From Verrucomicrobiota bacterium (GTDB lineage Bacteria > Verrucomicrobiota > Verrucomicrobiia > Limisphaerales > UBA9464), in assembly GCA_947471985.1 (NCBI GenBank), contig CANIZL010000046.1, forward strand, positions 1-50,366: a DNA stretch of 50,366 nt. Direction: 5' to 3'. How positions within the stretch are numbered: position 1 is the stretch's first letter; each line of letters starts with the position of its first letter. Below, one piece after another: positions 1,217 through 28,504 of this stretch. The notes under the pieces are model-generated. The model saw only the letters and a list, made by a program, of their open reading frames with translations, did no database searches and was not told where the DNA came from. The translations under genes were made by a program, and so were the position numbers.

Positions 1217-4200
1217 ATGTTTACCTCGTCCTTGAGCGCACTTTTGCGAGTCTTGATCGCCACCCTGCTGGCTGCCGGCCTGATCGGTTGGGCACAGGCC
1301 CCGTCGGACGCGACGGTCGTGCCTCTGTCCGAGGCATCGGCCGCGCCGGAGAGCGACCGTCTCCTGCAGGATGCCCAACATCCCGAACGCGTGCCCAACA
1401 GCGAGGGGGAACGGATCAAACTGCCCGTCGGGCCGCACCACCGGATTCATCGCAATGACGCCTGGCACACGAACCAATTGGGGGAAGTAACTCCGTACGT
1501 CAGCGAAGTGGTGCAGATCGAAACCGGCCTCAACCGGCAAACGGCCACCGGAGAGTGGGTGGAGGCGAGTGACGAGCTGGAGATTCAGGGCAATCAAGTG
1601 CTGTCCCGCAAGGCCCGGCACGGCGTGAAGATCGCCGGGCAATTGAACCGGATTGGCGCCATCGAGGTGACCGGACCGGACGGCAAGACGCTGTCGTTCA
1701 CCCCCATTGGCCTCATCTACTACGATCCCGTCTCGGGCAAATCCGCCGTGATCGCGCAGCTCAAAAAGAAGGTCACGGGCCGTAAAAACGGCGGCAATGA
1801 GATGATCTTCCAGGACTGCTTTGAAGGGGTCAACGTGGATATCCGGTATCGGAACTCGAAGTCGCGCTTTGAGCAGGACGTTATTATCAATCAGCAGCTC
1901 CCGGATGCCTCGGAGTACGGACTCGATCCGGCCACTGTCCGATTGCAGGTGGCCACCGAGTTCTTCACGTATCCGGAGCCCAACAAACGCAAGGCGAGCC
2001 GGCGGGACATCGCCAGCGACGACAAATGGGCCAAGGCCGTCGATCCCGAATTGGTCGATGAAAACCTGTCCTTCGGGGATCTCAAGATCAACGAGGGCGA
2101 GATTTTGGGACCGGACCCGGAGCGCCGATCCCCCAAAACGACGCTTTCCAGCAAGGAATTCCACAAAACGGCCGACGGACGGACCATCCTGTTTGAGGTG
2201 ATACCGATGCAGAATGCGGTGGGCCTGTTCCAAGGCTTGCCCGCGCCGGCACCCACGCCCGACGGCGGCCCGCGGGGTGCCGCCCTCCCGGGTAAATTCC
2301 ATCTGCCCCGGATCTCCAATCCCGTCCCGGACGACGAGCGAATCGTGGCCGCGGTGGATTATACACCCAAAGGGGTGGTGATGGACTTTCCCATCACCGT
2401 GGTCTCGCAAGCCAGCCTGACGTTGGCCGGCGACACCACCTACCTCGTGACCGGTGCCATTGAGGTCAACAATTTGGTGCTGGAAGGGGGCGCGGTCATC
2501 AAGAGCACCAAACCGGCGAGCTACAACGGACCGTACACGTGGATTCGGGTGTCGGATGGAACCTTTACCTCGCGGACGTCGCCCTTCCGGCCGGCGGTGT
2601 TCACCGCCTTCGAAGACAACACCGTCGGGGAAACCATCCCGAACTCCGTCGGCATCACCAACACCGGTGTGCCCTCTGGCTTCTACGGCACGCGCAACCT
2701 GGTCTTCGCCGGGATGCCGGGGGGCGTGGTCCTGGAAAACTGCCGCTTTCGTTACAGCCGGGAATCCATCTGGGCCTTGGCGCCATTCACCGTGCGGCAT
2801 TCGCAGTTCTACAATTGCGGTTTTGCCCTGATTTCCACCGACAATGACAGCATCATCGAGAACTGCCTGGTCACCGCGACGCAGGCCGTAAATAGCTACC
2901 AGCCGCCCGGATACACCTTTGCGGGACCGTGGGGCCCGACCCTCGTTGCCATCAATGAAGCCTCGACGCCCCATGTGCACGCGGTTCGGCAATGCACCCT
3001 GCGCGGCTTGTCCGATCTGACCTGGACCGATAGCACCGTCGCGTTCACCAATTTATGGCGCAATAACCTGATTGTGGGTGTCGGCGGTACCACCGGTTAC
3101 GTCAACAAGGTCGCCGATTACTACTCCGCCAGCGACCAGCCGGCGCTCTTTCAGCAAGTCGGCCTCGGGCTGCACTACCTGGCCGCCGGGAGTCCTCACG
3201 CCAATGTGGCGGGCCTGGACGCGAACATCGGCGCGGACTTGTTGGCGTCACTCCGTCAAAAGACCACCGCCCCCCCGATTCCCGTCAGCGTCGCGACGTC
3301 CCAGAGCTATTATCCCCGGGGAATCGGCGATACCAACGCGCTGGATCGGGGCTATCACTATCCGGTTATCGATTACACCCTGTCGGATCAGCAATATTAC
3401 CCTCCGAGTGGATCCGATGTAGCAACCTTCACCTTTGGCGGGGGTGTTGCGGTGGGGATTTATGGCTCGGTCGGCCTGACGCTGAACAACGGGGAAATTC
3501 TGCTCAGCGAAGGCACTCCGCTGCTGCCCAACCGGTTTTTTCGCCTGAACCTCGTTCAGGAGGCGCTACCCACGGCGTCCAACTGGTACACGGGCACCGA
3601 GTGGCTGCTGGGAACCGCCTGGGGGACTCGGGGAATGCGTCTTCGTTTCACGGAGTTCACCGCGTTGGCGGGTAACCCCACGGTTCGGGCCATCTTCGAT
3701 GAACGTCACCAGTATCCCTTTCCCGCCGGCATGGAAAGCTGGTTCCAGGAGTTCAACAATCCATCAACCCTTTGGGTTCAGGATTGTTCGTTCGCCGGCG
3801 TCTCCTTCACGCTCCCGATGTCGGCCGGGACCTGCCATGTTAACATGTTTATCAACAACGTGTTTGATCGGGCGCCTCTGGGTTTATACAAATACAACCC
3901 CAACACTTTCAACACGGTCAGTGTCTCGCTGCAAAACAATCTCTTTTATCGCGGTTCGCTCACCCTCGTCCATCCCAACACGAATATTCAATCCGGCGGT
4001 GAACTGAAGAATAACGTATTTGATGGCACGGTGTTCCCCGCCGCCTTCAATCCGGTCACCAACATTACGCTGAGCAACAACGGCTACGTCTACCCCACGT
4101 CAGCACCGGGTTTCGCCGAAAGTACCCGGACACTCGCCTACAGCTTTCAGTATGCCAATGGCCCCTTGGGACCGTGGTATCAAGCCTCCACGGATTTCGT

Positions 4201-7200
4201 GAACAAAGGATCCGGCTCCGCGGTGATCGCGAATCTGGCCTTCCACACCACCCGGGCCGATCAGATCCGGGAAGCGACCTCCCTCCTGGACCTGGGATTC
4301 CACTATCCCGCATTGAACTCCGGGGCGCTCTGGGATACCGACAACAACGGGTCCCCGGACTGTCTGGCCAATCTGACCGGATCCTCAGGAGTGCCGATCA
4401 CCCTGAATTGGATCAGCCCGGTGCATCATCAAACCAATTCCGGCGTTGTCACCTTCCAAACCAGCGTCACCGGCCCGGCGATCTCCCGCATTGAGTATTA
4501 CAAGTGCACGGAGTTTCTCGGATCCAACACGGCAGCGCCTTATACCTTTAACTGGTGCCCGAACGCCTCCGGCGCGGATCTCTTTTGGGTGCGGGCCGTT
4601 GGTACGGATGGATCGTTCTGGTTCTCGCCGCCCCGGATCGTGACGTACAGCTGTTTCGGCACCCAACCCCCGACCATCAGTTGGGAATCGCCGCTCGCCG
4701 GCACCACCTGGCCCATCTCCCCCACCAATGTTTTCCTAAAGGCGATTGCGTCCGCCGGGGCCGGCAACGGCACGATCACCCAGGTGGAGTTCTCCACCGG
4801 CAGCACCCTCATCGCCCAGGTGCCGTTGCCGCAAATTACCAACGCCTACACCTACTCCTGGCTGGATCGGACGAACGGCACCTACCCCCTGAAGGCCAAG
4901 GTGTACACCAGCACCGGTGCCACGGCGGAAGCCACCACCACCCTGGTCCTGAATGAACTGCCCAAGATCGCCTGGGTGGATCCCACCCGGAGTGCCAGTC
5001 TGCCGGCACCGGGCAATGTGAATCTGAAGGTATGGGCGGTGAACGGAGGCGCCGGTGGACCGCCCGCCAAGGTGGAATTCTTCAAATTCAAACCGGGAGC
5101 CCACACGCTGCTGGGCACCTTGACGGGTCCGACCTCTAGCGGCACCAACTACCTGCTGAATTGGAACGCCCTGAGTGAAGGCCAGCACTCGGTATTCGCC
5201 CGGGCGACGGACAACCTCGGGGCGACCCGGGACACGGACCTGCGCTTGATCGATGTTGGCGCCCGACCGACGGTTACCATCGTCAGTCCCACCAACGGCA
5301 CGACGCTCAAGGCCTACTCCTCCCCGACGATCGGGGTCGAGGCGTCCATTGCCGGCGGCCAGATCGCCTACGTCGACTTCTACGCCGGAACGAACTTTCT
5401 GGGCCGGGACACGACCGTGGGCACGAACGGATTCGGCGCAGCCAACTTCTACGAGCTGGAATTGAGCGGACTGGCGCCAGGGACATATGATTTCACGGCA
5501 CACGCGTTTGATGCCAGCAATCCACCCAAAAAGAAGACATCAGGCGTGGTTCATGTTGTTGTCGCACCGCCTCTGCCATCGCCGGGTAACGGTGAGTGGG
5601 ATTTCCAATTTGGAAATGTGCCAGGATTCAGAACGGATTCTCAAAAGGGCGCGTCGGTCGAGTACGATTCAAATGGTACACTCCATTTTACTGGAGGATA
5701 TCTTTCTCCCAGCGGCTACACCACAAAGTTATTAAAGTTCTCAAACTGTACTTGGTCGGAAGCATTTGGTGGGCAGGAAGGAAGTGGCTTATATGCCGCC
5801 AAGTACTATAAAGGAAACATGTGGTACGGCGGAGGTGGAAATTTCATCGGTGGACTGTCATTCAATTTCGCCAGAAGCTCTGGAACCACAATGTCACCGG
5901 CAGGCGCTGAGCTGGACCTTGCAGGAGTGGGCGGCGCCCTCTGTACAGGTGGCTGGAGTTGGGAATTCGGCGCGGGCATAATGACCATCTTGCCATGGAA
6001 TGGTGACATATTAATTGGTGGCCGATTTGATGGAGCAATATCTGACGCGGATCCTACCGTATTTGACACTTCCATCAGCAATATTGCCGCGCTTCGCGGT
6101 ACCGATTCTAATTGGTCGAAAGTTGGCATTGGAGATTTAAACGGCACCGTTCGCGCATTGGCGGTATACAACGGTGAACTTTATGCAGGGGGATACTTTA
6201 CCTTTGGCCCCCAAGCTAATTCATCGTACTTGGCCCGATTGGTCAATAATTCCTGGCAACCCGTGGGGACGGGTGTGAATGGACCGGTCCTGGCATTGAA
6301 AGTATACGCAGGCCAGCTTTATGTTGGAGGCGAATTTACCACTGCGGGAAATATCTCTGATGTTAACTGCATTGCCGTTTGGAATGGCAGTAAATGGTCA
6401 GGCGTTGCGGGTGGTGTTTTCGACGGTGGCGCCGGTCAGCCTGGTCAATGTAACCAACCAACACGAATATGCGGAATCGCCAACCATGGCGAAACTCTCT
6501 ATGTTACCGGCCACTTTCGCACTGCTGGTTCGGGGACTGGTGCAGTTTCTGCACGTCACATCGCACAGGCTACGTGGGACAGCGTCGAGCGAAGGTGGAC
6601 TTGGTCCCCGATGGGAGCAGGGCTGGCGGGTGGCACTGGTGATTTTGGTTGGGTGGGAACGGAGACCTGCGGATACAGCCTCGCGATTCGGGATTTCACG
6701 AGTAATGCTGGTTACGAAGTCGTTGTCGCTGGTAACTTTACAGAGGCTGGAGGAGCTCCTGCCAAATACGTGGCTCGCTGGATTGTCGGTGGGGAGATCG
6801 CTGCCGGTGAGAAATGCACTCCGTCAAGTTCGTCTGTGACCCTCATTACCCCTGCAGATGGTGCCACATCCTTCAGCAGTGTTGGAACCTTTACTGCAAG
6901 TGTGAATCTGCCGTCCAATACCACCCATACGATTGCCAGTGTCCTTTTCTGCGTAGACGGAGACCAGGGTACTACGGGGACGTTGCAATTCGGAAGTAGT
7001 GACATTTGGTATGCCACCGCGGCTAACCCTTTGGCTCCCGGGACCCACACAGTCCGCGCTGTGGCCACCTGTAATGATGGCTCGGCGTTCTCCGGCAAAA
7101 CTGTCACCTTTACGGTTCCCCAAGATTCTTCCACTATTGTTTTCGCTGATTCATTTGAAGTGCTTTCCCGTAATGTCGCCACGAATCTTCTCGTTCTGGC

Positions 7201-10200
7201 CAATCACAGTGGCGGGGCAAACCTGAGGGTGACATCGACTACGATTTTCGCCGATCCCTATGGTGGCTCGAGCTTGGGGAGTGCCTCTGTGGCCCCACAA
7301 GGAACACACATCATTTTCCAGCCGCGCCCCTACTCCTTCGGTCGGTGCGTTGTGAACTATGTTGCGAAAGACGCCGTTGGGGTGAATAGCGGCATTGCCA
7401 TCGTTCAGGTCAAAAGCCCCCCGGTAGTATCGATTGACAGCCCGACCGATGGTGCAGTCCTGCCAAGCCTCGCAGTGACAAGCATCCTTGGCTCTGCCAA
7501 GGACTACGATGGATCCATCAGTAACGTCGTTCTGTGGGTGGACGGTTCTCCCATCGCCACAGTTAATACCACCCCAGGGTTCTCCTTCCCGTGGATCCCA
7601 AGTGGGCCGGGCCATCACGTGCTGACCGTGGTAGCGAAGGACAATGACGGGTATACGACAACTTCGGCGCCGGTTACGGTTAAAATACTTGGGTCTGAGA
7701 CCAATCTGGTGGCGAAAATTAGCAGTCTTCAAAACTCCCAAACAAACTACAGCAGCCTGCCGGTGACCGACTACCCGGTGATCCCGGATGGGATTCTGTC
7801 ACTTCAAGGCCTCGCATATGCAATTATTGCGGGGCAGCCAAATCGGAGTACGAACACAACGTCCTTTCGGGTGATGCTCCAACCCACCTATCAAAGCGCC
7901 GCCAACGGGGTTTCTCCGTCGTACATTCTTACCAAGGGGCCGGATTGGGCGCAGGGGTTTGTTGGGGGCGGTGATACCAATGGGGCGCTGGGTACCTTCG
8001 ACCTGAGTCAGATTGAGAATGGTGTCTACGATCTGACCCTGACCGTTCGCTCCCAGAGATACGAATTGTCCGATTCAGTGACGGTGTCCCTCCGAAACAA
8101 TCTGAAGCTGGGCAACTTTAGCTTCAGTGAGCAAGACCTGGTGATTCCCGTCAACGGCATTCCCCTGACTGTGGTTCGGAAGTACGACACCTTGGGCGGC
8201 CAGGGAGGGGATTTCGGCCGTTGCTGGAGCATGACGATCAACGACATGGACGTACGGCTTGATGAGGATCGGACTTCCACTCCGGTCGTCGTCTTCAACG
8301 GAGCCGATCCCGGGGAAGGCGGCGTCCCGATGTTCAGCTTGCGCACCGGGGGTGGGCGCAATGTCAGTCTCATGCTGCCCGATGGTCGCCGGGGTGATTT
8401 CCTCTTTCGACCGCGGTTTTCCGCTTTTCCGGAGAAGCCTGTAGCGTGGGCTGAATGGCAGAGTCCACCCGGCGTTTCTGCACGATTGGTCGTAGCCGGC
8501 ACTCAGCCCGGCGATGAGAGCAACGCCAAGACCATAAATTTCTCCGCCAACGGCATCAACAAACCGGTTTGGTCCAACGGCGAGGCTCGAACTCCTTTCG
8601 AAGCGTATGACATCCCCGGTTTCGACCTGATCCTCAAGGATAGTACGAAGTTCGAACTGCGTCGGGACCCTGATTATGGGACCAGCACCAGTGCGGATTG
8701 GGTCACGTACGATGCCAACGGCTCCGGTTTGCTGGTGCCCGTCAGTCCGTATTCCAATCCCCTCAAGCTGAGGAACATCGTCCAACCCTCGGGCGACCGG
8801 GTGGAAATCAAGGCCGATGGTGTCAGTCACTACCTTGGAAGCAGCACTTCGCCAACTCGGAAGATCACATTCATCCGTGATGATCGCGGCCGCATCAGTG
8901 CCCTCACTGATCCTTTGGGGAACGCGAATCTTCCCTCTGTCCGTTACCTCTACAACGACGACAAGTACGTCCTGGTTCAAGTGCTCCGCCTCGTGGATCG
9001 AACCACCGGCCTGTACGCGACCAACCGCTACTACTACGACCACGCCCAGTACCCCAGTTACCTGACGCGCATCGTCGATGCCCGGGGCATTACCGTCGCC
9101 CGGAATGAATACGATGCCACGGGCAGGTTGACCGCGGTAGTCGATGCCTTGGGGCGCACCAATCGGTTCATCCATGATTTTGCCAATCACGTCGAGAAGA
9201 CCGTCGATCGCCTCGGATACACCAACAGCCTGGTCTACGACACCCGGGGTAACGTACTCGTCATCACCAATGCGCTGAACGAGGTGCGGTATATGGGCTA
9301 CGACAGCCTGAACAACAAGGTCGCCGAAACCAATTACCTCGGCGGCGCACCGGTGGTCACCAGCTGGCAGTACGATACGAATCGAAACCTGCTGACGGCT
9401 ACCATTGATTCCCTGAACAATACCAATCGGTTCGAATACAATGACTTATATCAATTGATTAAGCAGACGGATACGCGAGGCAATGATACCCAAATGGGCT
9501 ATGATTCCGGCCAGGTGGCCACGGTTTCGGACAGTTTGGGATCCATCCAAAGCAACACGTTTGCCAATGAGCTCCTGTCGACGTCCACCGATGGTGTCGG
9601 CACACTCACTGTTTTGACCTACGACGCCCTTCGGCAGGTTCAATCTACAATCGTCAAGGCAGCTAATGGATCGACCAATGCCATTTCTGCCACCACGTAC
9701 GATGACAATGGGAACACCAAAACCAGCACGTTGTACCGGGCAGGCGCCAGCGGGCTGATCCCCGATCTTACCACCTACTACTACGACGCGCAGGGAAGGG
9801 TAACCCACACCATTGGACCGGACTCGTTCACCAACCGCGTGGTTTACAACGAAGCCGGGATGACCCTGGAAACGTATGATCCGTACAATCGCCGGACCCA
9901 ATTTGTGTACAATGAGCTGGGCCAACGGATCCAGACCATCTATCCGGACACCAACATTGTCGAGCTGTCCTATTACGATGCCGAGGGACGGGTGACCAAC
10001 AGCGTGGATCGGTTGAATCGGAGCACGCGGACGGAGTACGATCAACTGGGCCGGGTGAAAAAGGTCATTTTCGCCTTTGGCACCGCCAACGTGACGAGCA
10101 ATCAGACGTTCTACGATTCGTTGGGACGGATTTCCAAGACCATCGACGCCCGGGGCATCATCACCACCAACGTCTACGATTTGGCCGGACGCCGCACGTC

Positions 10201-12607
10201 CGTCGTCAACGCCTGGAATACGACGGTCGCGCAGACAAATTCGTATCGCTACGACGCGGCAGGATCCGTCACGAACATGTTGGACGCACTGGGGCGGTCG
10301 ACGGACTACGAGTACGATCAGCGGGGCCGATTGGTCCGGACCTACGCTCCGGCGTTGACCGTTGGTGGCCCAAGATTGGTGTCCACCGTGGTCTATGATG
10401 CCGCGGGGCGGCGTACGATGGAGACGAGCGCGGCGGGTTTGATCAAAGCGTTCGGCTACGATGGCGCCGGGCGTTTGATTGCGGTGACCAATGGCCTGGG
10501 GAACTGGGCGGGTTATGCCTCCGCCACAAACTGGGCTCGGTTCGAGTACGATTGGGCCGGCAATATGGTGGCCCAGACCGATGCCTTGGGTCGGACCAAT
10601 TGCTTCAAATACGACGCCATGGGGCGCCGGATCTGGTCGAAGATGCCGGGCGGGCAGACCAATGGATTCGGCTACGATGCCGTGGGAAATCTGATCCTCA
10701 GCACCAATGCGGATAACGTGGTCATCTCCCACGGCTACGACGAGTTCAATCGCCTGAAATGGCGAAAGTCCGCGGGGATTTTGGTCCTGACCAATAACTA
10801 CACCGCCAGCGGACGATTGGCGCGACGGGTCGATGAAGCGGGGACCAACACCTGGGTGTACGATTCCCGGGACCGGGTTATCACGAATACGACGCCGGTT
10901 GGGACACTTTCCTATTCCTACGATGCCAATGGCAACCAACTGACACTCAAATCCGGGCTCAGCAATGGTGTGGACCTCAGCTTTGGCTACGATGAGTTGA
11001 ATCGCCTTATCAACAGCACGGACAATCGCCTCAGCACCGCGAATAAGGGCACCAGCTACAAATACGATTGGGTGGGTAACCTTACAGAACTGGATCAGCG
11101 ACCCGCGGGAATAAAGACCCAATATGCTTACGATGCGCGGAATCGGCTGACCAATTTGAGCACCACGAACGGGCCGGGTACGGTCCTTGGGAGCTTTGCG
11201 TACAGCCCCAATATTCTTGGCAACCGGACGAGCCTGACGGAATCGGTGGGAGGAGTGGCTCGGACGTACACTTGGAGCTACGACGCTTTGCAGCGCCTGC
11301 TGGGTGAAACCCATGTGAGTGGAGGGATCACGAGCAGCCTTGGTTACGGCTTCGATCTGGTCGGCAACCGCACCAACCGGACCGGCAGTTTGGGATCGAT
11401 GACGGCAACAAATTGGCTGTTTGATCTGAACGATTGGTTCTACAGCGGTGCCGTAACGACCAACCTCAGTCCCTATTTCGACGCCAAGGGGAATACGAAG
11501 GTTTTTGGAACGACAACCAATTCCTACGACTGGGCCAATCGGCTGACGAACGGGACGACTGTTTCATCCATCGTGTACGATGCGGAGGGGAACCGGATCA
11601 AGAAGGTGGCCGGCGGTACGACGACGTGGTACCTGGTGGCGACGGTGAATCCGACCGGGTATCCGCAGGTGGTGGAGGAGTTCACCGGAAGCAGTCCCGG
11701 GACCAGCACGCTGAGCCGGGTGTACGGGTACGGCCTGGACCTGTTGCATCAACGCCAGATGCCGGGCAACACGCCGAACTTCTACGGATACGACGGCCAG
11801 GGCAGCGTTCGTTTCCTGGTGGGCACCAACAGCACGATCACGGACACCTACGTCTACGACAGCTACGGCAATCTGGTGTCGTCCACGGGCAGTACTTCAA
11901 ACAACTACCGCTACACGGGTGAGCAATGGGATGCGGACCTGGGCATGTACTACCTGCGGGCCCGGTACTACCAGCCCTCCGTCGGCCGCTTCTGGACCCG
12001 CGACACTTACGAAGGGGATTCGTCGGATCCGCTGAGCCTGCATCGGTACCTCTATACACAGGGGAATCCGGTGAACTGGGTGGATCCGTCGGGACATGAA
12101 ACCCTGAAAACAAAAATTGGAAAGGAAGTCCATAAAAAGCTAGGCGAGATATTCACCGGGAACGGCACCATTCCGCTTCGCTTTTCGGGACCTTCGATAG
12201 CCACAATTGGGGGCAAGCTCAAACTTCCCATTCCGGATGGCCTCCAAGTTCTGTTTCCCGACTTGCTTGATGCGGGCAAAAAGGAAATTTACGAGATCAA
12301 GCCACTTACGGCATATGGCATCGCCACCGGATACTTTCAAGCAATCGGCTATCAAAGCCTGCTAAATCAGATCGACCCATCAGGTGGATGGCATTTAGGA
12401 AGCACTTGGACGCCGCCAAATTTCATAATCCTTACTTCAGGAGTCGCATATATTACACCAGTTGTGGGTGGAGTCATTTACTATGAGGCAATGACAATTC
12501 AAGACATTGCCAAGAGGGGTGCGCGAACAGTTCGACAATCTGACGAAGGACGACTGCAACAGATGACGGGAATTTCCTCAGTTATTTCGTTGCTAGGCGG
12601 ATTCTAA
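1217..12607 (+). CDS. Giant secreted RHS/YD-repeat polymorphic toxin with a PD-(D/E)XK nuclease-like tip (3,796 aa)
   Basis: The protein begins with a signal peptide (residues about 1-27). About 410-1030 is a right-handed beta-helix-like region of repeated short strands. About 1055-1450 holds tandem Ig-like domains. About 1457-1867 is a propeller-like region with recurring AGGxF or VGGEF blades, and more Ig-like modules follow to about 2160. A DUF6531-like segment starts near 2296 (VIPVNGIPLTVVRKYD) and opens the RHS shell, followed by many YDxxGR/NR repeats. The conserved core (YLRARYYQPSVGRFWTRD) ends with DPSG at 3623-3626. The last 168 residues are a distinct tip with D3682, E3693 and K3695 in a PDLLD...YEIKP arrangement, typical of restriction-endonuclease-fold toxins. 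RHS shells are known to encapsulate C-terminal toxins. The signal peptide suggests Sec export rather than T6SS loading. The target and nuclease activity are inferred. The likely immunity gene follows 22 bp downstream. Confidence 0.93.
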   Translation: MFTSSLSALLRVLIATLLAAGLIGWAQAPSDATVVPLSEASAAPESDRLLQDAQHPERVPNSEGERIKLPVGPHHRIHRNDAWHTNQLGEVTPYVSEVVQIETGLNRQTATGEWVEASDELEIQGNQVLSRKARHGVKIAGQLNRIGAIEVTGPDGKTLSFTPIGLIYYDPVSGKSAVIAQLKKKVTGRKNGGNEMIFQDCFEGVNVDIRYRNSKSRFEQDVIINQQLPDASEYGLDPATVRLQVATEFFTYPEPNKRKASRRDIASDDKWAKAVDPELVDENLSFGDLKINEGEILGPDPERRSPKTTLSSKEFHKTADGRTILFEVIPMQNAVGLFQGLPAPAPTPDGGPRGAALPGKFHLPRISNPVPDDERIVAAVDYTPKGVVMDFPITVVSQASLTLAGDTTYLVTGAIEVNNLVLEGGAVIKSTKPASYNGPYTWIRVSDGTFTSRTSPFRPAVFTAFEDNTVGETIPNSVGITNTGVPSGFYGTRNLVFAGMPGGVVLENCRFRYSRESIWALAPFTVRHSQFYNCGFALISTDNDSIIENCLVTATQAVNSYQPPGYTFAGPWGPTLVAINEASTPHVHAVRQCTLRGLSDLTWTDSTVAFTNLWRNNLIVGVGGTTGYVNKVADYYSASDQPALFQQVGLGLHYLAAGSPHANVAGLDANIGADLLASLRQKTTAPPIPVSVATSQSYYPRGIGDTNALDRGYHYPVIDYTLSDQQYYPPSGSDVATFTFGGGVAVGIYGSVGLTLNNGEILLSEGTPLLPNRFFRLNLVQEALPTASNWYTGTEWLLGTAWGTRGMRLRFTEFTALAGNPTVRAIFDERHQYPFPAGMESWFQEFNNPSTLWVQDCSFAGVSFTLPMSAGTCHVNMFINNVFDRAPLGLYKYNPNTFNTVSVSLQNNLFYRGSLTLVHPNTNIQSGGELKNNVFDGTVFPAAFNPVTNITLSNNGYVYPTSAPGFAESTRTLAYSFQYANGPLGPWYQASTDFVNKGSGSAVIANLAFHTTRADQIREATSLLDLGFHYPALNSGALWDTDNNGSPDCLANLTGSSGVPITLNWISPVHHQTNSGVVTFQTSVTGPAISRIEYYKCTEFLGSNTAAPYTFNWCPNASGADLFWVRAVGTDGSFWFSPPRIVTYSCFGTQPPTISWESPLAGTTWPISPTNVFLKAIASAGAGNGTITQVEFSTGSTLIAQVPLPQITNAYTYSWLDRTNGTYPLKAKVYTSTGATAEATTTLVLNELPKIAWVDPTRSASLPAPGNVNLKVWAVNGGAGGPPAKVEFFKFKPGAHTLLGTLTGPTSSGTNYLLNWNALSEGQHSVFARATDNLGATRDTDLRLIDVGARPTVTIVSPTNGTTLKAYSSPTIGVEASIAGGQIAYVDFYAGTNFLGRDTTVGTNGFGAANFYELELSGLAPGTYDFTAHAFDASNPPKKKTSGVVHVVVAPPLPSPGNGEWDFQFGNVPGFRTDSQKGASVEYDSNGTLHFTGGYLSPSGYTTKLLKFSNCTWSEAFGGQEGSGLYAAKYYKGNMWYGGGGNFIGGLSFNFARSSGTTMSPAGAELDLAGVGGALCTGGWSWEFGAGIMTILPWNGDILIGGRFDGAISDADPTVFDTSISNIAALRGTDSNWSKVGIGDLNGTVRALAVYNGELYAGGYFTFGPQANSSYLARLVNNSWQPVGTGVNGPVLALKVYAGQLYVGGEFTTAGNISDVNCIAVWNGSKWSGVAGGVFDGGAGQPGQCNQPTRICGIANHGETLYVTGHFRTAGSGTGAVSARHIAQATWDSVERRWTWSPMGAGLAGGTGDFGWVGTETCGYSLAIRDFTSNAGYEVVVAGNFTEAGGAPAKYVARWIVGGEIAAGEKCTPSSSSVTLITPADGATSFSSVGTFTASVNLPSNTTHTIASVLFCVDGDQGTTGTLQFGSSDIWYATAANPLAPGTHTVRAVATCNDGSAFSGKTVTFTVPQDSSTIVFADSFEVLSRNVATNLLVLANHSGGANLRVTSTTIFADPYGGSSLGSASVAPQGTHIIFQPRPYSFGRCVVNYVAKDAVGVNSGIAIVQVKSPPVVSIDSPTDGAVLPSLAVTSILGSAKDYDGSISNVVLWVDGSPIATVNTTPGFSFPWIPSGPGHHVLTVVAKDNDGYTTTSAPVTVKILGSETNLVAKISSLQNSQTNYSSLPVTDYPVIPDGILSLQGLAYAIIAGQPNRSTNTTSFRVMLQPTYQSAANGVSPSYILTKGPDWAQGFVGGGDTNGALGTFDLSQIENGVYDLTLTVRSQRYELSDSVTVSLRNNLKLGNFSFSEQDLVIPVNGIPLTVVRKYDTLGGQGGDFGRCWSMTINDMDVRLDEDRTSTPVVVFNGADPGEGGVPMFSLRTGGGRNVSLMLPDGRRGDFLFRPRFSAFPEKPVAWAEWQSPPGVSARLVVAGTQPGDESNAKTINFSANGINKPVWSNGEARTPFEAYDIPGFDLILKDSTKFELRRDPDYGTSTSADWVTYDANGSGLLVPVSPYSNPLKLRNIVQPSGDRVEIKADGVSHYLGSSTSPTRKITFIRDDRGRISALTDPLGNANLPSVRYLYNDDKYVLVQVLRLVDRTTGLYATNRYYYDHAQYPSYLTRIVDARGITVARNEYDATGRLTAVVDALGRTNRFIHDFANHVEKTVDRLGYTNSLVYDTRGNVLVITNALNEVRYMGYDSLNNKVAETNYLGGAPVVTSWQYDTNRNLLTATIDSLNNTNRFEYNDLYQLIKQTDTRGNDTQMGYDSGQVATVSDSLGSIQSNTFANELLSTSTDGVGTLTVLTYDALRQVQSTIVKAANGSTNAISATTYDDNGNTKTSTLYRAGASGLIPDLTTYYYDAQGRVTHTIGPDSFTNRVVYNEAGMTLETYDPYNRRTQFVYNELGQRIQTIYPDTNIVELSYYDAEGRVTNSVDRLNRSTRTEYDQLGRVKKVIFAFGTANVTSNQTFYDSLGRISKTIDARGIITTNVYDLAGRRTSVVNAWNTTVAQTNSYRYDAAGSVTNMLDALGRSTDYEYDQRGRLVRTYAPALTVGGPRLVSTVVYDAAGRRTMETSAAGLIKAFGYDGAGRLIAVTNGLGNWAGYASATNWARFEYDWAGNMVAQTDALGRTNCFKYDAMGRRIWSKMPGGQTNGFGYDAVGNLILSTNADNVVISHGYDEFNRLKWRKSAGILVLTNNYTASGRLARRVDEAGTNTWVYDSRDRVITNTTPVGTLSYSYDANGNQLTLKSGLSNGVDLSFGYDELNRLINSTDNRLSTANKGTSYKYDWVGNLTELDQRPAGIKTQYAYDARNRLTNLSTTNGPGTVLGSFAYSPNILGNRTSLTESVGGVARTYTWSYDALQRLLGETHVSGGITSSLGYGFDLVGNRTNRTGSLGSMTATNWLFDLNDWFYSGAVTTNLSPYFDAKGNTKVFGTTTNSYDWANRLTNGTTVSSIVYDAEGNRIKKVAGGTTTWYLVATVNPTGYPQVVEEFTGSSPGTSTLSRVYGYGLDLLHQRQMPGNTPNFYGYDGQGSVRFLVGTNSTITDTYVYDSYGNLVSSTGSTSNNYRYTGEQWDADLGMYYLRARYYQPSVGRFWTRDTYEGDSSDPLSLHRYLYTQGNPVNWVDPSGHETLKTKIGKEVHKKLGEIFTGNGTIPLRFSGPSIATIGGKLKLPIPDGLQVLFPDLLDAGKKEIYEIKPLTAYGIATGYFQAIGYQSLLNQIDPSGGWHLGSTWTPPNFIILTSGVAYITPVVGGVIYYEAMTIQDIAKRGARTVRQSDEGRLQQMTGISSVISLLGGF

Positions 12608-12629
12608 ACTTGGCAATGCGTTTAAATTT

Positions 12630-13391
12630 ATGACCTACGCTGAAGCTCAAAATGAATTTAGCACTCGCCTTTACCGCTGGGCAAAGGGCGCTTTGGAAAG
12701 GGAAGTGATCGAGGGATTTCCTCGATTCCAGGGTATCAAAGATTGGTCGCGATTGAGATGCCTTTTCTTTCAAAGTCTCGACGATGAGTCGCGAACTTTG
12801 TTCGCACAGCACATCCTTCGAATGCGTCATCAAAATGCAGCTGAGGCTTTTGGGGAGGAAGTGTCCACAAAAGCCGAGGTGCTAGTGCGTCTCGAAGAAG
12901 ACTTTCGTAGCGAGAGCAACGCTTGGTTCAGAGTGTCAGGTTCAGACGCTGATCGTACCAGGAAAACGTTGGCATCGCGCCGAGAGATTAAGAAGGCTGT
13001 AGGTGATCGTTTTTGGACGGCTTTTGGCAAAGATTGGATTCGTTGCGATTCGGAAGCGGGGAAGACCGGATTGCGTTATAGGAACGAATATCATGGGTGG
13101 GTAGTTTTAACGGAATTTGAGTTTGGCCGATGGGATCCGGAAATCACCTGTGTCCACGATATTTGGACTGGAAAGTTGATTACACGTGAAGATCCCCAAG
13201 TCTTGGTTGCGAATTGCCTGGGGTTTCAAATGAACTACGGTAACGAGATTGGAATCGGGTCAGGATGGGAACGTATAGCGGTTGATGACGTCGATCAGAC
13301 CTGCTCCATTGTGATGGAGCATTGCCAACGATTGTTCGATATTCTGCCAATGCTGCTGGAAAGCTTAGATCTGAAGTCTTTGGTCAAGTGA
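12630..13391 (+). CDS. Probable immunity protein for the RHS toxin tip
   Basis: This 253-residue cytoplasmic-looking protein has no signal peptide or membrane segment. It starts 22 bp after the RHS stop codon on the same strand. It is rich in Trp, Phe and Glu, with segments such as WVVLTEFEFGRWDP and a helical, acidic C-terminus (HCQRLFDILPMLLESLDL). I cannot assign it to a named family. The immunity call rests on position: polymorphic toxin genes are normally followed directly by the cognate immunity gene. It also rests on base composition, because this gene and the toxin tip share the same AT-richer stretch, unlike the RHS shell. A role unrelated to immunity is possible. Confidence 0.65.
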   Translation: MTYAEAQNEFSTRLYRWAKGALEREVIEGFPRFQGIKDWSRLRCLFFQSLDDESRTLFAQHILRMRHQNAAEAFGEEVSTKAEVLVRLEEDFRSESNAWFRVSGSDADRTRKTLASRREIKKAVGDRFWTAFGKDWIRCDSEAGKTGLRYRNEYHGWVVLTEFEFGRWDPEITCVHDIWTGKLITREDPQVLVANCLGFQMNYGNEIGIGSGWERIAVDDVDQTCSIVMEHCQRLFDILPMLLESLDLKSLVK

Positions 13392-13673
13392 AATGCATTT
13401 TGTTGCTGTAATGAATAGCACTGGTTGTGGACGCTTCAGTTTTCAAGGCGCTGATTATTTCGGTGCATACCTGTTCTTCAAGCGACCCGTGGCGGAGCCG
13501 GGCATGGCGCGCTGCGCGCGCCTCGCCCGACTCTGCCGCGGGACCCGGGCTGGAAGTAGGAAGGTTGAATTATGAAGGATGAAACTAGATTCTGAACCAG
13601 AAGAGGACACACGGGTGCGGGCGCGTGGCCGAACCCGGCGTCCGGGGATCCCTGGCCAGTTTTGGTGAAGTGA
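13392..13673. other. Intergenic stretch before the MITE-like element
   Basis: Apart from the palindrome at 13486-13542, this stretch has no convincing gene. A 60-codon frame (13393-13575) runs through the palindrome and changes composition abruptly. A 29-codon frame (13579-13668) gives a short charged peptide. Neither has a clear ribosome site or a recognisable product, so neither is called. Confidence 0.5.
13486..13542. repeat. 57-bp imperfect palindrome downstream of the immunity gene
   Basis: The centre is a 7-bp perfect stem, GGCGCGC (13506-13512) and GCGCGCC (13516-13522), with a TGC loop. Further out, CGGGC pairs with GCCCG across a 2-base bulge, and CCGTGGCGGAGC pairs partly with a matching segment up to 13542. 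The whole 57 bp is symmetrical about 13514. It lies about 95 bp after the immunity stop codon and could serve as a terminator or a REP-type extragenic palindrome. No T-run follows. Confidence 0.6.
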
Positions 13674-13937
13674 GGGTCCGCGAAAGAATTACTTGGTCAT
13701 TTGCTGGCGGCGATGGCTCGTGGCAAGACGCGACGAAGGAACATAGCTGGCTCCGTGACTGAGCAGCAACGCAGCCAGTAGCCCAAATCGCCCCAGCCCG
13801 ACGGGGCGGTGCGGCACTTGGCCATCTGCTGCGTTGCTCGTCGGTTACAGCCCGTTGACGGGATGCGCCCTCCTCGCGCCTTGCATATGGCCAGTTGGCG
13901 CACCCGCCAAATGACCAATTAATTCTTTCGCGGACCC
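13674..13937. mobile_element. MITE-like element with ~30-bp terminal inverted repeats and TGA flanks
   Basis: The left end starts GGGTCCGCGAAAGAATTA at 13674. The right end, ending at 13937, is its reverse complement, with one mismatch over the first 30 bases. Both ends are flanked by TGA (13671-13673 and 13938-13940), which looks like a 3-bp target duplication. The interior is also largely self-complementary: a segment with gagcagcaacgcag near 13760 pairs with ctgcgttgctc near 13830, and there is a G/C hairpin near 13789-13808 at the tip. No transposase frame fits inside 264 bp, so it would be non-autonomous. On the minus strand its right end interrupts the HUH-like frame described next. Confidence 0.65.
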
Positions 13938-14272
13938 TGACCCGCCGCGTTCAGTCGGGGGTCAAAAAGTGTGATGCGGGCCATGCCGCCCTTGAGGTTC
14001 TCCCAGTGGGCCATGAGCCAGAAGCAAGTTTGCTGGTTGACCGCTTCCGGCGGCAGTCCGGTCAGGAGGAAGTGGAAGTGACGCCGGCCGGTGGTCTCGC
14101 CGTCTTCCTGGCGAAGGCACCAGGGAAGCTTGGGAAAGTGGCGGTGGAAGTGTTTGGCGGCCCGGCGGAGGAGCGCAAACCACAGCCCCAGGCGGACGCG
14201 TTCCGGCAAACGTTCGGATTTGAACGTGAGCGTGCCGAAGAACTGCCAGCGGATCTGGCCGAGCAGGAACAC
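13919..14272 (-). pseudogene. Interrupted HUH-endonuclease / Rep-like protein
   Basis: The 117-residue minus-strand frame contains FFGTLTF near residue 11, resembling motif I of rolling-circle Rep proteins. Further on, GRRHFHFLLTG contains a His-hydrophobic-His (HUH) metal-binding motif. After FDPRLNAAG the frame runs into the right end of the MITE-like element and stops within seven codons, before a catalytic tyrosine region could be encoded. The start near 14272 is a GTG; the frame upstream lies in the edge of the palindromic repeat array. In RAYT and Rep systems, HUH proteins act on hairpins like those next door. This specific link is inferred. The family call rests on two short motifs only. 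Confidence 0.5.
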
Positions 14273-23300: not shown

Positions 23301-24470
23301 ATGTTGGATCCCCATTCTCTTGGGACGCGCCGTCTGGCACCGGCGATCGTCGAGTACATCCACCGGACTTCTCCGGCGGCGGCCCCGGCGCACCGACTGA
23401 CGGCGGAAGCGGCGGACGCGCAATTTGAACAGCTGGCGCGGGAGTTGTTTGCGGCCCAGTTCGCGGCGAATCCGCCGTACCAGGCCTGGTGCCGCAGCCG
23501 CGGGGTGGATCCGACGCGGATCCGTTCCTGGCGGGACATCCCGGCCGTGCCGACCGCCGCCTTCAAGGAATTCGACCTGACCTGCCTGCCGCCGGCCGGG
23601 CGCACCCGGGTGTTTCACTCCAGCGGCACGACGGCCCAGCGCCCGGGGCGCAACTTTCATGATGCGGAGTCGCTCTCCGTATATGAAGCCAGCCTGCGGC
23701 CCTGGTTTGTGGCGCACGTGCTGGGGGAGTTGCCCGAGTTGGAGGCGGAGGAGTTGCTGGCTCCGGGACAAGATCCTGCCTTTCTGTCGCTGACGCCGCC
23801 GGCGGAGGCGGTCCCGCATTCGTCGCTGGTGTACATGTTCGATACGATCGTGCGCCACCATGGCGCGCGGGATTCGGTGTTTGCCGGTCGGCTGGATGCC
23901 GGGGGCGGCTGGGAAGTGGACCACGACCGCGCGCTCTTTGCCCTCCGGAAATCGATGTGCGCGAATCGGCCGATTCTCCTGCTGGGTACGGCCTTCAATT
24001 TTGTGCAACTGCTCGATCACTTCGCGGCGGGCAATATCCGGTATCGCCTGGCGGAGGGCTCGCGGGTTTTGGAAACGGGCGGCTATAAGGGCCGTACCCG
24101 GGTCGTACCGAAGGCCGAACTCCACGCCCTGATCACGCGTCATTTGGGTATTTCTCCGCGCCGAATCGGCTGCGAGTACGGCATGTGTGAACTGGCCAGT
24201 CAGGCGTACGATGACCCTGGAGCGGATCACCGGCGCTTCCATTTTCCCCCGTGGGCGCGGGCCCGGGTGATTTACCCGGAAACCGGCGCGGACGTTCCGG
24301 ATGGGCAGCCGGGCCTCATCCAGATTTGTGATCTGGCGAATGTCGCGTCCGTGGTGGCCGTGCAAACCGGCGACCTGGGCGTGCGCTCCGGCGACGGCAG
24401 CTTCGAGCTGCTGGGCCGCGCGGAAGCGGTGGAACCCAAAGGCTGCTCGCTCAACTCGGCGGACGTCTGA
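23301..24470 (+). CDS. luxE: LuxE-family acyl-protein synthetase
   Basis: The 389-residue protein is taken to start at the ATG at 23301 (MLDPHSLGTR); the longer open frame overlaps the divergent gene and lacks homology. It shows the LuxE (PF04443) pattern: IPAVPTAAFKEFDLTCLP, then FHSSGTTAQRPGRNF (about 105-119, adenylate-forming loop), CEYGMCELASQAYD, and a C-terminal ELLGR...KGCSLN with Cys382 placed like the acyl-carrying cysteine of LuxE. In luminous bacteria LuxE activates a fatty acid as acyl-AMP and passes it to LuxC, which reduces it to aldehyde. luxC follows after 22 bp. No luxA, luxB or luxD is in the window, so the product probably serves another pathway. Confidence 0.9.
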   Translation: MLDPHSLGTRRLAPAIVEYIHRTSPAAAPAHRLTAEAADAQFEQLARELFAAQFAANPPYQAWCRSRGVDPTRIRSWRDIPAVPTAAFKEFDLTCLPPAGRTRVFHSSGTTAQRPGRNFHDAESLSVYEASLRPWFVAHVLGELPELEAEELLAPGQDPAFLSLTPPAEAVPHSSLVYMFDTIVRHHGARDSVFAGRLDAGGGWEVDHDRALFALRKSMCANRPILLLGTAFNFVQLLDHFAAGNIRYRLAEGSRVLETGGYKGRTRVVPKAELHALITRHLGISPRRIGCEYGMCELASQAYDDPGADHRRFHFPPWARARVIYPETGADVPDGQPGLIQICDLANVASVVAVQTGDLGVRSGDGSFELLGRAEAVEPKGCSLNSADV

Positions 24471-24492
24471 TCCTTCATCCCTGTTTTTAACC

Positions 24493-25908
24493 ATGACTCT
24501 CCCCAACCTCTATCTCGCCGACTTGGGCCCGGGCTTGGAACTCTCGCCGTCGACGCTCCACGAAGCTGCGTACGCGATCCGTCGGAACCGGGAGCAATGG
24601 CTGCGTCGGCAGCGCACGCGCACGCTCGTGGAATTGCTAGCGTACGCGGCGGATCGCTGGCGGGATCCGCAGAATAGTTTTCGGTTGCGGGCGTTGAGCG
24701 AAGGCGCGGCCGATGCGGGATTCGGTCCGGCCACCCTGGCGCGCGGACTCGACGCGTTTCTCGCGAGTGTGACGGCGGAGAATCTGGAAGGGCTCATCGT
24801 TCAGGACCTCGGCGACGCGAAGCGGCTGGATGGCTTTGCCGGGACGATGCCGGAACTGCGCACGGGCCGGACGAGTTTCGCCCGCGGGCCGGAACTGCTG
24901 GTTCATTTCTGCGCCGGCAATCTGCCCACGCCCACGCTGATGAATCTGGTACTGGGCGTGCTGACCAAGTCGGCGCAGTTTTTCAAGCTCCCGACCCGCG
25001 GCGGCTTGATCCCCCGTTTGTTTGCCCACTCCCTGGCCGAACTGGAGCCGAAGCTCGGGGCCTGCCTCGAATTCGCCACCTGGCCGCGCGAACGATTGGA
25101 TCTGGAGGACGCCCTGCTGGCCAACGCCGATTGCGTCACCGCCACGGGGTCGGACGAACGCATTCAGGCGGTGCGCCAGCGGATGCCGGTGCGGACGCGC
25201 CTGGTGATCTACGGGCATCGCGTCAGTTTCGCCTATATTGCGTCGGAGATGCTCACGCTGTACGGCTTGAAGCGCCTCGTGGCCGACGCGGCGGCGGATA
25301 TCGTTGCGTGGAACCAACTGGGCTGTCTCTCGCCGCACGTTATCTACGTGCAGGATCAGGGGGTGGTTTCGCCCGAGGGATTCGCTTCCGCCCTGGCAGA
25401 TGAATTGGCCCGACTGGAGAAGCTGGAACCGCGTGGGGAATTGAGTCCAACGGAGGCTGGCGCCATTCTGTCGGCCCGGACGGTTTACGAAATGCGTCGG
25501 GCCGTGGGACCGGGCCCGCTGGATCTGGCGCGGCAGGAGTCGGTGTTTTTTGAATCCGCGCACACGGTGCATCTCTGGCAGAGCGAGGAATCCACGGCGT
25601 GGACGGTGGTGCTCGACACGGATCCCACCTTCAAGCATTCCTGTCTCCAGCGCTTTATTTACATCAAGCCAGTCAAACAACTGGCGGCGGTGCTGCGTTT
25701 TGCCGAGCCCATTCGCTCGCAGCTTTCCACGGTCGCGCTGGCGGCGCAGGAGGATATCGGCGCCGCCCACGCCCTGGAACTGGCCCGCTGGGGTGCGACC
25801 CGCATTTGTCCCTTGGGCCGAATGCAGGCGCCGCCCCTGCTGTGGCGTCACGACGGTCGCCCGGCCTTGGGCGATCTGGTCACCTGGACCGATCTGGAAT
25901 CCTGCTGA
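24493..25908 (+). CDS. luxC: LuxC-family acyl-CoA/acyl-protein reductase
   Basis: The 471-residue protein is taken to start at the ATG at 24493, 22 bp after luxE; the longer frame runs back through luxE. It matches the LuxC family (PF05893), with [19 protein letters not shown] (about 135-153), an NAD(P)H-binding aldehyde-dehydrogenase-like core, and [13 protein letters not shown], where Cys278 occupies the place of the catalytic cysteine. LuxC reduces an activated acyl group to a long-chain aldehyde with NADPH. Together with LuxE it would form a fatty-acid reductase giving aldehyde. Possible uses are plasmalogen, wax or special lipid synthesis; none can be chosen from this window. queD follows 74 bp later. 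Confidence 0.92.
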
Positions 25909-26497: not shown

Positions 26498-28504
26498 ATG
26501 TCTGAGGATAACAACATGCCGCCCGGGGATCGCCGTCCCTCCGAGCCCCGGATGCAGGCGAAGACTTGGATCTTGCTCATTGCGTTGGCGGCGTTGGTGC
26601 CGGCGCTGATGTTTGCCAATGCACGCCGGGGTCCGACCTCGAAGGAAATCTCGTACAAGGAGTTGCTGGACGAGGCGCGAGCCGGGCGCATCAAGGACGG
26701 GGCCATGCGGCGGCTGGAGGGATCGGGAAGCTTCGAAGTCACGGGACGCCTGATGGATGTGGAGGGCGGCAAGACCAACTTCACGCGCTTTCACACGCAG
26801 TTGACGCTGACGGATCGCGTGGCGGATGAGCTGCAACAGTCGGGCATCCAGACTGCCACGGCGTCCGGGCTGTGGGTGCCGGTTTTGTTGAATTTCCTCC
26901 TGCCGCTCCTGTTCCTCGGGGCGCTTTTCTACTTTTTCATCTTCCGCCAGATCCGGAATGCCGGTCGCGGCGCGATGAACTTCGGCAAATCGAAGGCGCG
27001 GTTGCTGAGCAAGGATCGCAACAAAACCACGTTTAAGGACGTGGCGGGCGTGGAAGAGGCCAAGGACGAAGTCGCGGAATTGGTGGAGTTCCTCAAGGAT
27101 CCCAAGAAATTCCAGAAGCTCGGCGGACGGATTCCGAAGGGTATTCTGATGGTCGGTCCTCCGGGAACGGGCAAGACGCTCATCGCCAAGGCCATCGCCG
27201 GCGAGGCGGATGCGAGCTTTTTCAGCATCAGCGGATCCGACTTCGTCGAGATGTTTGTCGGCGTCGGCGCCAGCCGCGTACGGGACATGTTTGAGCAGGC
27301 GCGGAAGAACACCCCGTGCCTTATTTTCATTGATGAAATCGACGCGGTGGGTCGTTCCCGCGGCCACGGGCTCGGCGGCGGCAACGACGAGCGCGAGCAG
27401 ACGCTGAACGCGTTGCTGGTCGAAATGGACGGCTTCGATACCCAGGAGGGCATCATCATCATTGCGGCCACCAACCGGCCCGATGTGCTGGACCCGGCGT
27501 TGCTGCGCCCGGGCCGTTTTGACCGCCAGGTGACGGTGAACCTGCCGGACGTGCGGGGTCGGGAAGCCATTCTGAAGGTTCACGCCAAGAACGTGAAGCT
27601 CGATGCGGCGGTCGATCTGTCGGTCATTGCTCGGGGCACGCCGGGATTCTCCGGGGCGGAACTGGCCAACCTTTTGAACGAGGCCGCGCTGCTGGCGGCG
27701 CGCACCGGTAAGAAGTCGATCAACATGCCGGAGTTGGAAGAGGCGCGGGACAAGGTCCGCTGGGGCCGCGAACGGCGCAGTCTGGCCATGACCGAGGAAG
27801 AGAAGCGCCACACGGCGTGGCACGAGGCGGGTCACGCGCTGGTCAACGTGGTGCTCAAGCAGACGCATCCGCTGCACAAGGTCACCATCATTCCCCGCGG
27901 TCGGGCACTGGGCATGACCATGATGCTGCCCAAGCAGGATATTTTGAGCCAGCGCCGCAAGCACTTGATGGACGAACTGGCCGTGACCATGGCCGGTCGC
28001 ATCGCGGAGGAGATCGTGGCCGACGACATTTCCAGTGGCGCTTCCGGGGACATCCAGATGGCGACCGCCACCGCCAAGGCGATGGTGATGCACTGGGGCA
28101 TGAGCGAAAAGCTCGGCATGGTGTTGTACGGGGAGGCGCAGGAGTATGTGTTCCTCGGGCGCGACATGATGCGGTCCAAGGAATACAGCGAACGCACGGC
28201 GCAGGAGATCGATGGCGAGGTGAAGCGGATCATCGACGAGGCGTACGAGCGGGCGCGGGCGGTGATTGTGACGCACCGGGTGCAATTGGAACTGGTGGCG
28301 AAGGCGCTGCTGGAATACGAGACCCTGGAAGGTTCCCAGGTGGAGGAGATCGTACGGACCGGAACCTTCACGCCGCCGCAGATGCCGCCCAAGGATGTGG
28401 ATCCGCCGTCGGGCGCGCAGGCGGTGACGCCGCTGCCCGAGGTGGTGAAGCCGTTGCCGCCGAAGATCGGTGGTTTGACCAGTCCGGCGCCCTCGCCGGC
28501 CTAG
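26498..28504 (+). CDS. ftsH: ATP-dependent zinc metalloprotease FtsH
   Basis: The 668-residue inner-membrane AAA+ protease has two membrane segments (about 22-40 and 125-149) flanking the periplasmic FtsH-extracellular domain ([13 protein letters not shown] and following). Walker A is GPPGTGKT (220-227), Walker B is LIFIDE (275-280), and [20 protein letters not shown] follows. The zinc site is HEAGH at 442-446, with a downstream Asp-containing [11 protein letters not shown] helix. FtsH degrades misfolded and regulatory membrane and cytoplasmic proteins as a hexamer. The tail after about residue 625 is Pro-rich and variable. A promoter candidate lies directly upstream; kamA follows after 158 bp. 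All key residues are intact. Confidence 0.98.

What the first reader, a model, noticed from the sequence alone, without database searches (positions are those of the whole stretch)
11900..13391. RHS shell with a swapped nuclease-like tip and adjacent candidate immunity gene
The RHS core ends at DPSG (residue 3623). The 168-residue tip then has D3682, E3693 and K3695 in the PD-(D/E)XK order, and a 253-residue gene follows 22 bp later. Tip and neighbour are visibly AT-richer than the RHS shell, as expected when toxin-immunity modules are exchanged. Polymorphic toxin families are known; this immunity protein is not one I can name. Toxicity and immunity are inferred.
Basis: partly seen in the sequence, partly recalled or inferred. 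Interest (0 to 1): 0.72.

Follow-up and report, generated by a model that had tools for sequence, protein, structure and literature searches.

The report
RHS toxin tip with immunity gene
A giant bacterial protein ends in an exchangeable piece that is probably a DNA- or RNA-cutting toxin, followed at once by the gene that probably protects its maker; the kind of system is well known, but this protective protein matched no catalogued family.

Summary
A 3796-residue RHS protein (window 1217-12607) ends its core at DPSG (residue 3623), then carries a 168-residue tip and, 22 bp later, a 253-residue gene. Both are AT-rich (48% and 49% GC; shell 58%). The tip is related to Tox-REase-9: below Pfam's cut-off (20.2 against 27.3 bits), but a profile comparison with two true Tox-REase-9 tips of the same order gives E 3.1e-5, and it has GxxxH, PD and ExKP. 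D, E and K are kept in its relatives. The 253-residue protein matched nothing at E<=1 in Pfam, NCBIfam, PHROGs or PADLOC. It is linked to this tip: in 4 of 11 genomes with a homologue (the window's included) a tip or tip remnant lies directly upstream, 9-31 bp away. In 6 of 11 no tip lies in the stretch held, so solitary copies are common; one copy sits at a contig edge. RHS shells of the same taxonomic family carry other tips. Best reading: an RHS polymorphic toxin with a Tox-REase-9-like nuclease tip and an uncatalogued immunity family. Toxicity, cleavage and neutralisation were not tested; AlphaFold2 models were too weak to show either fold. New member of a known kind; modest interest.

The parts
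1217..12607 (+). Giant RHS protein, 3796 aa: hydrophobic N-terminus that looks like a signal peptide (by eye, no predictor run), Ig-like Big_7 repeats, DUF6531, RHS/YD repeats, Rhs-associated core, variable tip
   Evidence: ORF; Pfam RHS_repeat E 3.8e-60, Big_7 E 1.8e-31, DUF6531 E 2.2e-5; NCBIfam Rhs_assc_core E 2.4e-20 at residues 3547-3627
11855..12097 (+). Rhs-associated core, residues 3547-3627, with D-P-S-G at 3623-3626, behind which the tips differ between relatives
   Evidence: 72.8 bits, cut-off 32.5; DPSG position; different tips
12101..12604 (+). Tip, residues 3629-3796: Tox-REase-9-like predicted nuclease; GxxxH, PD (D3682), ExKP (E3693, K3695)
   Evidence: Pfam PF15650 E 7.1e-4, below cut-off; profile comparison with two true Tox-REase-9 tips E 3.1e-5; conserved motifs
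12630..13391 (+). 253-aa candidate immunity protein, no catalogued family found
   Evidence: No family at E<=1 in Pfam, NCBIfam, PADLOC or PHROGs; homologues directly behind homologous tips in G681 and G467 and behind a tip remnant in G448
13670..13941 (.). 43-nt inverted repeat pair (86% complementary) about 280 bp behind the immunity gene, possibly a small mobile element; link to the module unproved

Best explanation
It is an RHS polymorphic toxin locus. The giant protein has a hydrophobic N-terminus (export inferred). Its RHS repeats presumably form a shell around the last 168 residues, which are probably released by cleavage at the conserved DPSG end of the core (inferred from RHS proteins in general, from memory). 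The tip is probably a metal-dependent nuclease of the restriction-endonuclease fold, a sister group of Tox-REase-9, with D3682, E3693 and K3695 as active-site residues. It would cut nucleic acid in rival cells. The 253-residue protein made from the next gene most likely binds the tip and keeps it inactive in the producer and its kin. Tip and gene travel as one cassette into different shells. Shown: anatomy, sequence relationship, pairing in four genomes (one of them with only half a tip), different tips on related shells. Inferred: export, cleavage, nuclease activity, target, neutralisation.
For: RHS core by Pfam and NCBIfam. Tip: Tox-REase-9 hits at E 7.1e-4 (window), 2.2e-3 (G681), 1.7e-3 (cyanobacterial piece) and 0.24 (G694, cut tip), all below cut-off; profile comparison E 3.1e-5. 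The published Tox-REase-9 signature is GxxxH, E, D, ELKP, YxxE (PMC3482391, passages seen); the tip has GKEVH, PDLLD, EIKP. Pairing: tip and gene adjacent in G000 (22 bp), G681 (14 bp) and G467 (9 bp), and C-terminal half of a tip plus open gene in G448 (31 bp) (gaps). Exchange: of 30 RHS core loci read, only the window's carries this tip; the two nearest cores end in a 202- and a 205-residue tip of other sequence. AT-rich module.
Against: Pfam score below the family cut-off (20.2 against 27.3 bits); YxxE of the family reads YxxL here; the relatives G467 and G634 have no Tox-REase-9 hit at E<=1. AlphaFold2 model of the tip unusable (pLDDT 39.7, pTM 0.26). Six of 11 genomes with a homologue of the 253-residue gene show no tip in the stretch held, so the gene may also do something else. 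Besides the window only two tip-gene pairs with a roughly whole tip were found (G681, G467), both on short ORFs without a large shell. G634, a distant tip relative, is followed by a different gene with MORN repeats. No experiment.
Confidence: 0.82

Rival explanations
1. The tip is a toxin, but the 253-residue gene is a mobile neighbour with another function that has hitch-hiked next to it.
For: Homologues without a tip in the held stretch in 6 of 11 genomes: G001, G040, G587, G572, G645, G461.
Against: Adjacent, same strand, 9-31 bp behind homologous tips or a tip remnant in four genomes of four taxonomic families; where the tip is half lost (G448) the gene is still open, as expected of protection kept after toxin loss. 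Tip relatives are rare (6 of 320 genomes), so repeated adjacency is unlikely to be chance (no formal test made).
Confidence: 0.12
2. The tip is a decayed or non-catalytic C-terminus, a surface-protein ending with no nuclease activity.
For: Low-scoring family match; poor model; several relatives are broken or cut (G448 half tip, G467 short ORF, G694 leaving the alignment near a contig end, cyanobacterial frame break).
Against: Open frame, and D, E and K kept between genomes at 40% (G681), 33% (G467) and 35% (cyanobacterial piece) identity.
Confidence: 0.1
3. The tip is a nuclease used inside the cell, for instance as a defence or toxin-antitoxin module, rather than delivered.
For: G681 and G467 carry the tip on short ORFs (339 and 199 aa) without a large shell.
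Against: The window's copy is the end of an RHS giant with a hydrophobic N-terminus, and the G681 short ORF also begins with a signal-peptide-like stretch (by eye); no PADLOC match.
Confidence: 0.06

Closest known systems
Tox-REase-9 (Pfam PF15650; Zhang et al. 2012, PMC3482391)
   Same: RHS-borne C-terminal toxin with GxxxH, D, ExKP; profile match to two members of the same order that pass the cut-off, L084 and L085
   Different: Score below the curated cut-off; YxxE replaced by YxxL; the chain runs on well past the part that aligns with the two members; followed by a different neighbour family (the two members here are followed by DUF4304 proteins)
Imm54 (listed partner of Tox-REase-9 in PMC3482391)
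   Same: Lies directly behind the toxin tip
   Different: The 253-residue protein has no Pfam match, and its family shows no profile similarity to the DUF4304 neighbours of the two Tox-REase-9 tips (hhalign probability 0.1). That DUF4304 is Imm54 is from memory.
RHS polymorphic toxins in general
   Same: Long RHS shell, Rhs-associated core ending in DPxG, variable tip, small gene behind it
   Different: Nothing essential found

Membership tests
RHS polymorphic toxin | RHS/YD repeats and Rhs-associated core domain | tested here: met
RHS polymorphic toxin | Variable C-terminal tip after the core on related shells | tested here: met
   of 30 core loci read, the 29 others have other tips
RHS polymorphic toxin | Specific neighbour gene that travels with the tip | tested here: met
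   adjacent to a tip or tip remnant in 4 of 11 genomes with a homologue; 6 of 11 without a tip in the held stretch, 1 at a contig edge
RHS polymorphic toxin | Toxic tip neutralised by the neighbour's product | not testable with these tools
   needs expression
Tox-REase-9 (PF15650) | Score over the curated cut-off (27.3 bits) | tested here: not met
   20.2 bits, E 7.1e-4
Tox-REase-9 (PF15650) | GxxxH, D and E-x-K-P in this order | tested here: met
   GKEVH, PDLLD, EIKP (EIKP where the paper prints ELKP); signature from PMC3482391
Tox-REase-9 (PF15650) | YxxE behind the catalytic lysine | tested here: not met
   YQSL in the window; YLQL, YLGL, YLQV, YLSK in four relatives; YLQE in L084 but YMKG in L085, which passes the Pfam cut-off
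Tox-REase-9 (PF15650) | Restriction-endonuclease fold | tested here: inconclusive
   pLDDT 39.7, pTM 0.26; no convincing solved relative by sequence
Imm54 or another catalogued immunity family | Match to a curated family | tested here: not met
   no similarity to the DUF4304 neighbours

The most novel reading that the evidence does not exclude
The 253-residue protein founds an uncatalogued immunity family specific to a Tox-REase-9 sister group in this order of Verrucomicrobia; the many solitary copies are kept as stand-alone protection against toxins delivered by neighbours.
Probability: 0.6. Interest if true: 0.42.

Novelty: new member of a known kind. Interest (0 to 1): 0.33.

Why it matters
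It adds a probable immunity family without a name, and a nuclease clade that shares its motif with Tox-REase-9 but has another partner: a small natural test of how immunity proteins change when related toxins diverge. It also documents tip exchange on RHS shells in a group of Verrucomicrobia known mostly from uncultured genomes (that last point from memory). The system type itself is described in PMC3482391 (2012).

Tried and rejected
Weak tip matches in long ORFs of relatives (loci L018-L036): eight of these 19 loci were read (L018-L022, L024, L030, L032) and are repeats of another secreted-looking protein matching only residues about 84-156; treated as chance, and the rest not read. PDB sequence searches gave nothing convincing: best E 0.26 (tip) and 0.19 (neighbour) alone, 1.1 for the tip profile. 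The neighbour profile reached E 0.006 to a 41-residue stretch of a sucrose-phosphate synthase-like protein and 0.011 to a DNA helicase, taken as chance. Foldseek with the neighbour's low-confidence model found nothing (best E 0.36). The tip's model (pLDDT 39.7) was not searched because matches would be meaningless. The idea that the neighbour is a distant DUF4304 protein found no support. Plasmids gave no match, viral contigs none out of 187 candidate stretches; the genome-contig scan gave 2 relatives out of 259 candidates. The phage and E. coli collections were not searched. The 387-genome phylum searches found only the window's own copies.
Full report
Observation. ORF 1217..12607 encodes 3796 residues and ORF 12630..13391 encodes 253. 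GC falls from 0.582 (shell) to 0.477 (tip) and 0.486 (neighbour), third-position GC from 0.703 to 0.462 and 0.498. The D...E-x-K pattern by itself is common in this protein (13 places, 3 in the tip), so other evidence was needed.

Anatomy. Pfam finds RHS repeats, Big_7 Ig-like domains and DUF6531; NCBIfam places the Rhs-associated core at 3547-3627. The N-terminus looks like a signal peptide by eye (no predictor was run). No second copy was found in the window's own genome: the tip search gave one other place at E 0.18 over 41 residues, taken as chance; the neighbour search only the window's copy at E <= 0.01; the end of the core only the window's at E <= 0.001.

The tip. Pfam Tox-REase-9 matches at E 7.1e-4 (20.2 bits; cut-off 27.3). 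Relatives: G681 (RHS core end plus tip on a 339-residue ORF, 40% identical), G467 (core remnant ending DPSGH plus tip on a 199-residue ORF), G694 (RHS core plus the first about 100 positions of the tip; it leaves the alignment and stops about 100 bases before the contig end), G448 (C-terminal half only, behind an unrelated ORF start), G634 (distant, E 7.5e-4; MORN-repeat gene behind it) and a cyanobacterial contig with the reading frame broken inside the tip. So 6 of 320 genomes of the order have a tip match, three of them (window, G681, G467) being rows of the query alignment and matching by construction. Of five relatives or pieces scanned against Pfam, three hit Tox-REase-9, all below cut-off (G681 E 0.0022, cyanobacterium E 0.0017, G694 E 0.24), and two (G467, G634) do not. 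Tox-REase-9 members over the cut-off exist in 2 of 195 genomes of the order. A profile comparison of three tips of the window's kind with these two gives probability 73% and E 3.1e-5 over 50 columns, aligning PD, ExKP and the stretch behind (one pairwise comparison of shallow alignments). Zhang et al. 2012 list for Tox-REase-9 the signature GxxxH, E, D, ELKP, YxxE, the partner Imm54 and RHS repeats (PMC3482391, passages seen). The window's tip has GxxxH, D and EIKP, but YxxL. I therefore call it Tox-REase-9-like, not a member.

The neighbour. No family at E<=1 in Pfam, NCBIfam, PADLOC or PHROGs. Of the eight members of alignment A2 (the window's included; the broken copies of G001 and G013 left out) none has a convincing Pfam match, best E 0.14. 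Homologues occur in 10 of 293 genomes of the order by single-sequence search (the window's genome included), and a profile search of 195 genomes of the order found 6, of which one, a remnant in G461, is new: 11 genomes in all. Only the window's own was found in a 387-genome sample of the phylum. Context: directly behind a tip or tip remnant in 4 (G000 22 bp, G681 14 bp, G467 9 bp, G448 31 bp); 238 bp from a contig start in 1 (G013, internal stop); no tip in the held stretch in 6 (G001 broken, G040, G587, G572 with only about 1 kb to the contig end, G645, G461 a deletion remnant with about 1.5 kb held). The two Tox-REase-9 tips are followed by DUF4304 genes, with no detectable similarity to this family. 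So related toxin tips use different partners.

Exchange. In 49 genomes of the taxonomic family, 23 (own included) have a match to the end of this RHS core at E <= 1e-5. Of those matches 30 came as loci, and all 30 were read: 19 and the 11 with the core on the other strand. Only the window's own has this tip; the best other score in a profile search of the stretches behind the core is E 0.13. In a few of these the blast match to the core was partial (for instance L071, L074), so the stretch read there includes RHS sequence. G003 has a 4392-residue open frame alignable from residue 9 to 1050 and from 2966 to 3628, with an unrelated 205-residue tip; G001 (core 56%) has an unrelated 202-residue tip and a different small ORF behind it. 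Neither of these two tips has a Pfam match below E 0.09. G001 also holds a broken copy of the 253-residue gene elsewhere.

Structure. AlphaFold2 with 3 and 2 sequences gave pLDDT 39.7 / pTM 0.26 (tip) and 49.9 / 0.47 (neighbour). The order of elements in the tip model would suit an endonuclease core, but at this confidence it is no evidence. Foldseek with the neighbour found nothing.

Host.

Literature. Searches for Tox-REase-9 (1 paper), for polymorphic toxin + Rhs + immunity + restriction endonuclease fold (2) and for Verrucomicrobia + polymorphic toxin (12) were made; only passages of PMC3482391 were seen, the rest as listing. I did not search the literature for the 253-residue protein itself, which has no name to search by.

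Verdict. It is an ordinary kind of system with an uncatalogued probable immunity partner.

Noticed in passing
13670-13712 and 13899-13941: A 43-nt inverted repeat pair (86% complementary) with a smaller one inside (13755-13775 / 13828-13848), about 280 bp behind the immunity gene; looks like a small mobile element.
   Followed up: no
13922-14272 (-): 117-residue ORF with a sub-threshold match to REP_ORF2-G2P (E 2e-5, 25.2 bits, cut-off 27.8): possibly a remnant of a mobile-element replication protein.
   Followed up: no
163-1131: 322-residue gene just upstream of the RHS giant without a Pfam family at E<=1; no match beside the G003 shell.
   Followed up: partly
L084 1495-3090 and 3-902 (-): Two consecutive RHS-core-plus-tip ORFs with partly identical core sequence, the first with a Tox-REase-9 tip followed by a DUF4304 gene: looks like a cassette array.
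   Followed up: no
24301-25908: LuxC-type acyl-CoA reductase (E 2.2e-58); an FtsH-like AAA protease (Peptidase_M41) lies at 26498-28504.
   Followed up: no
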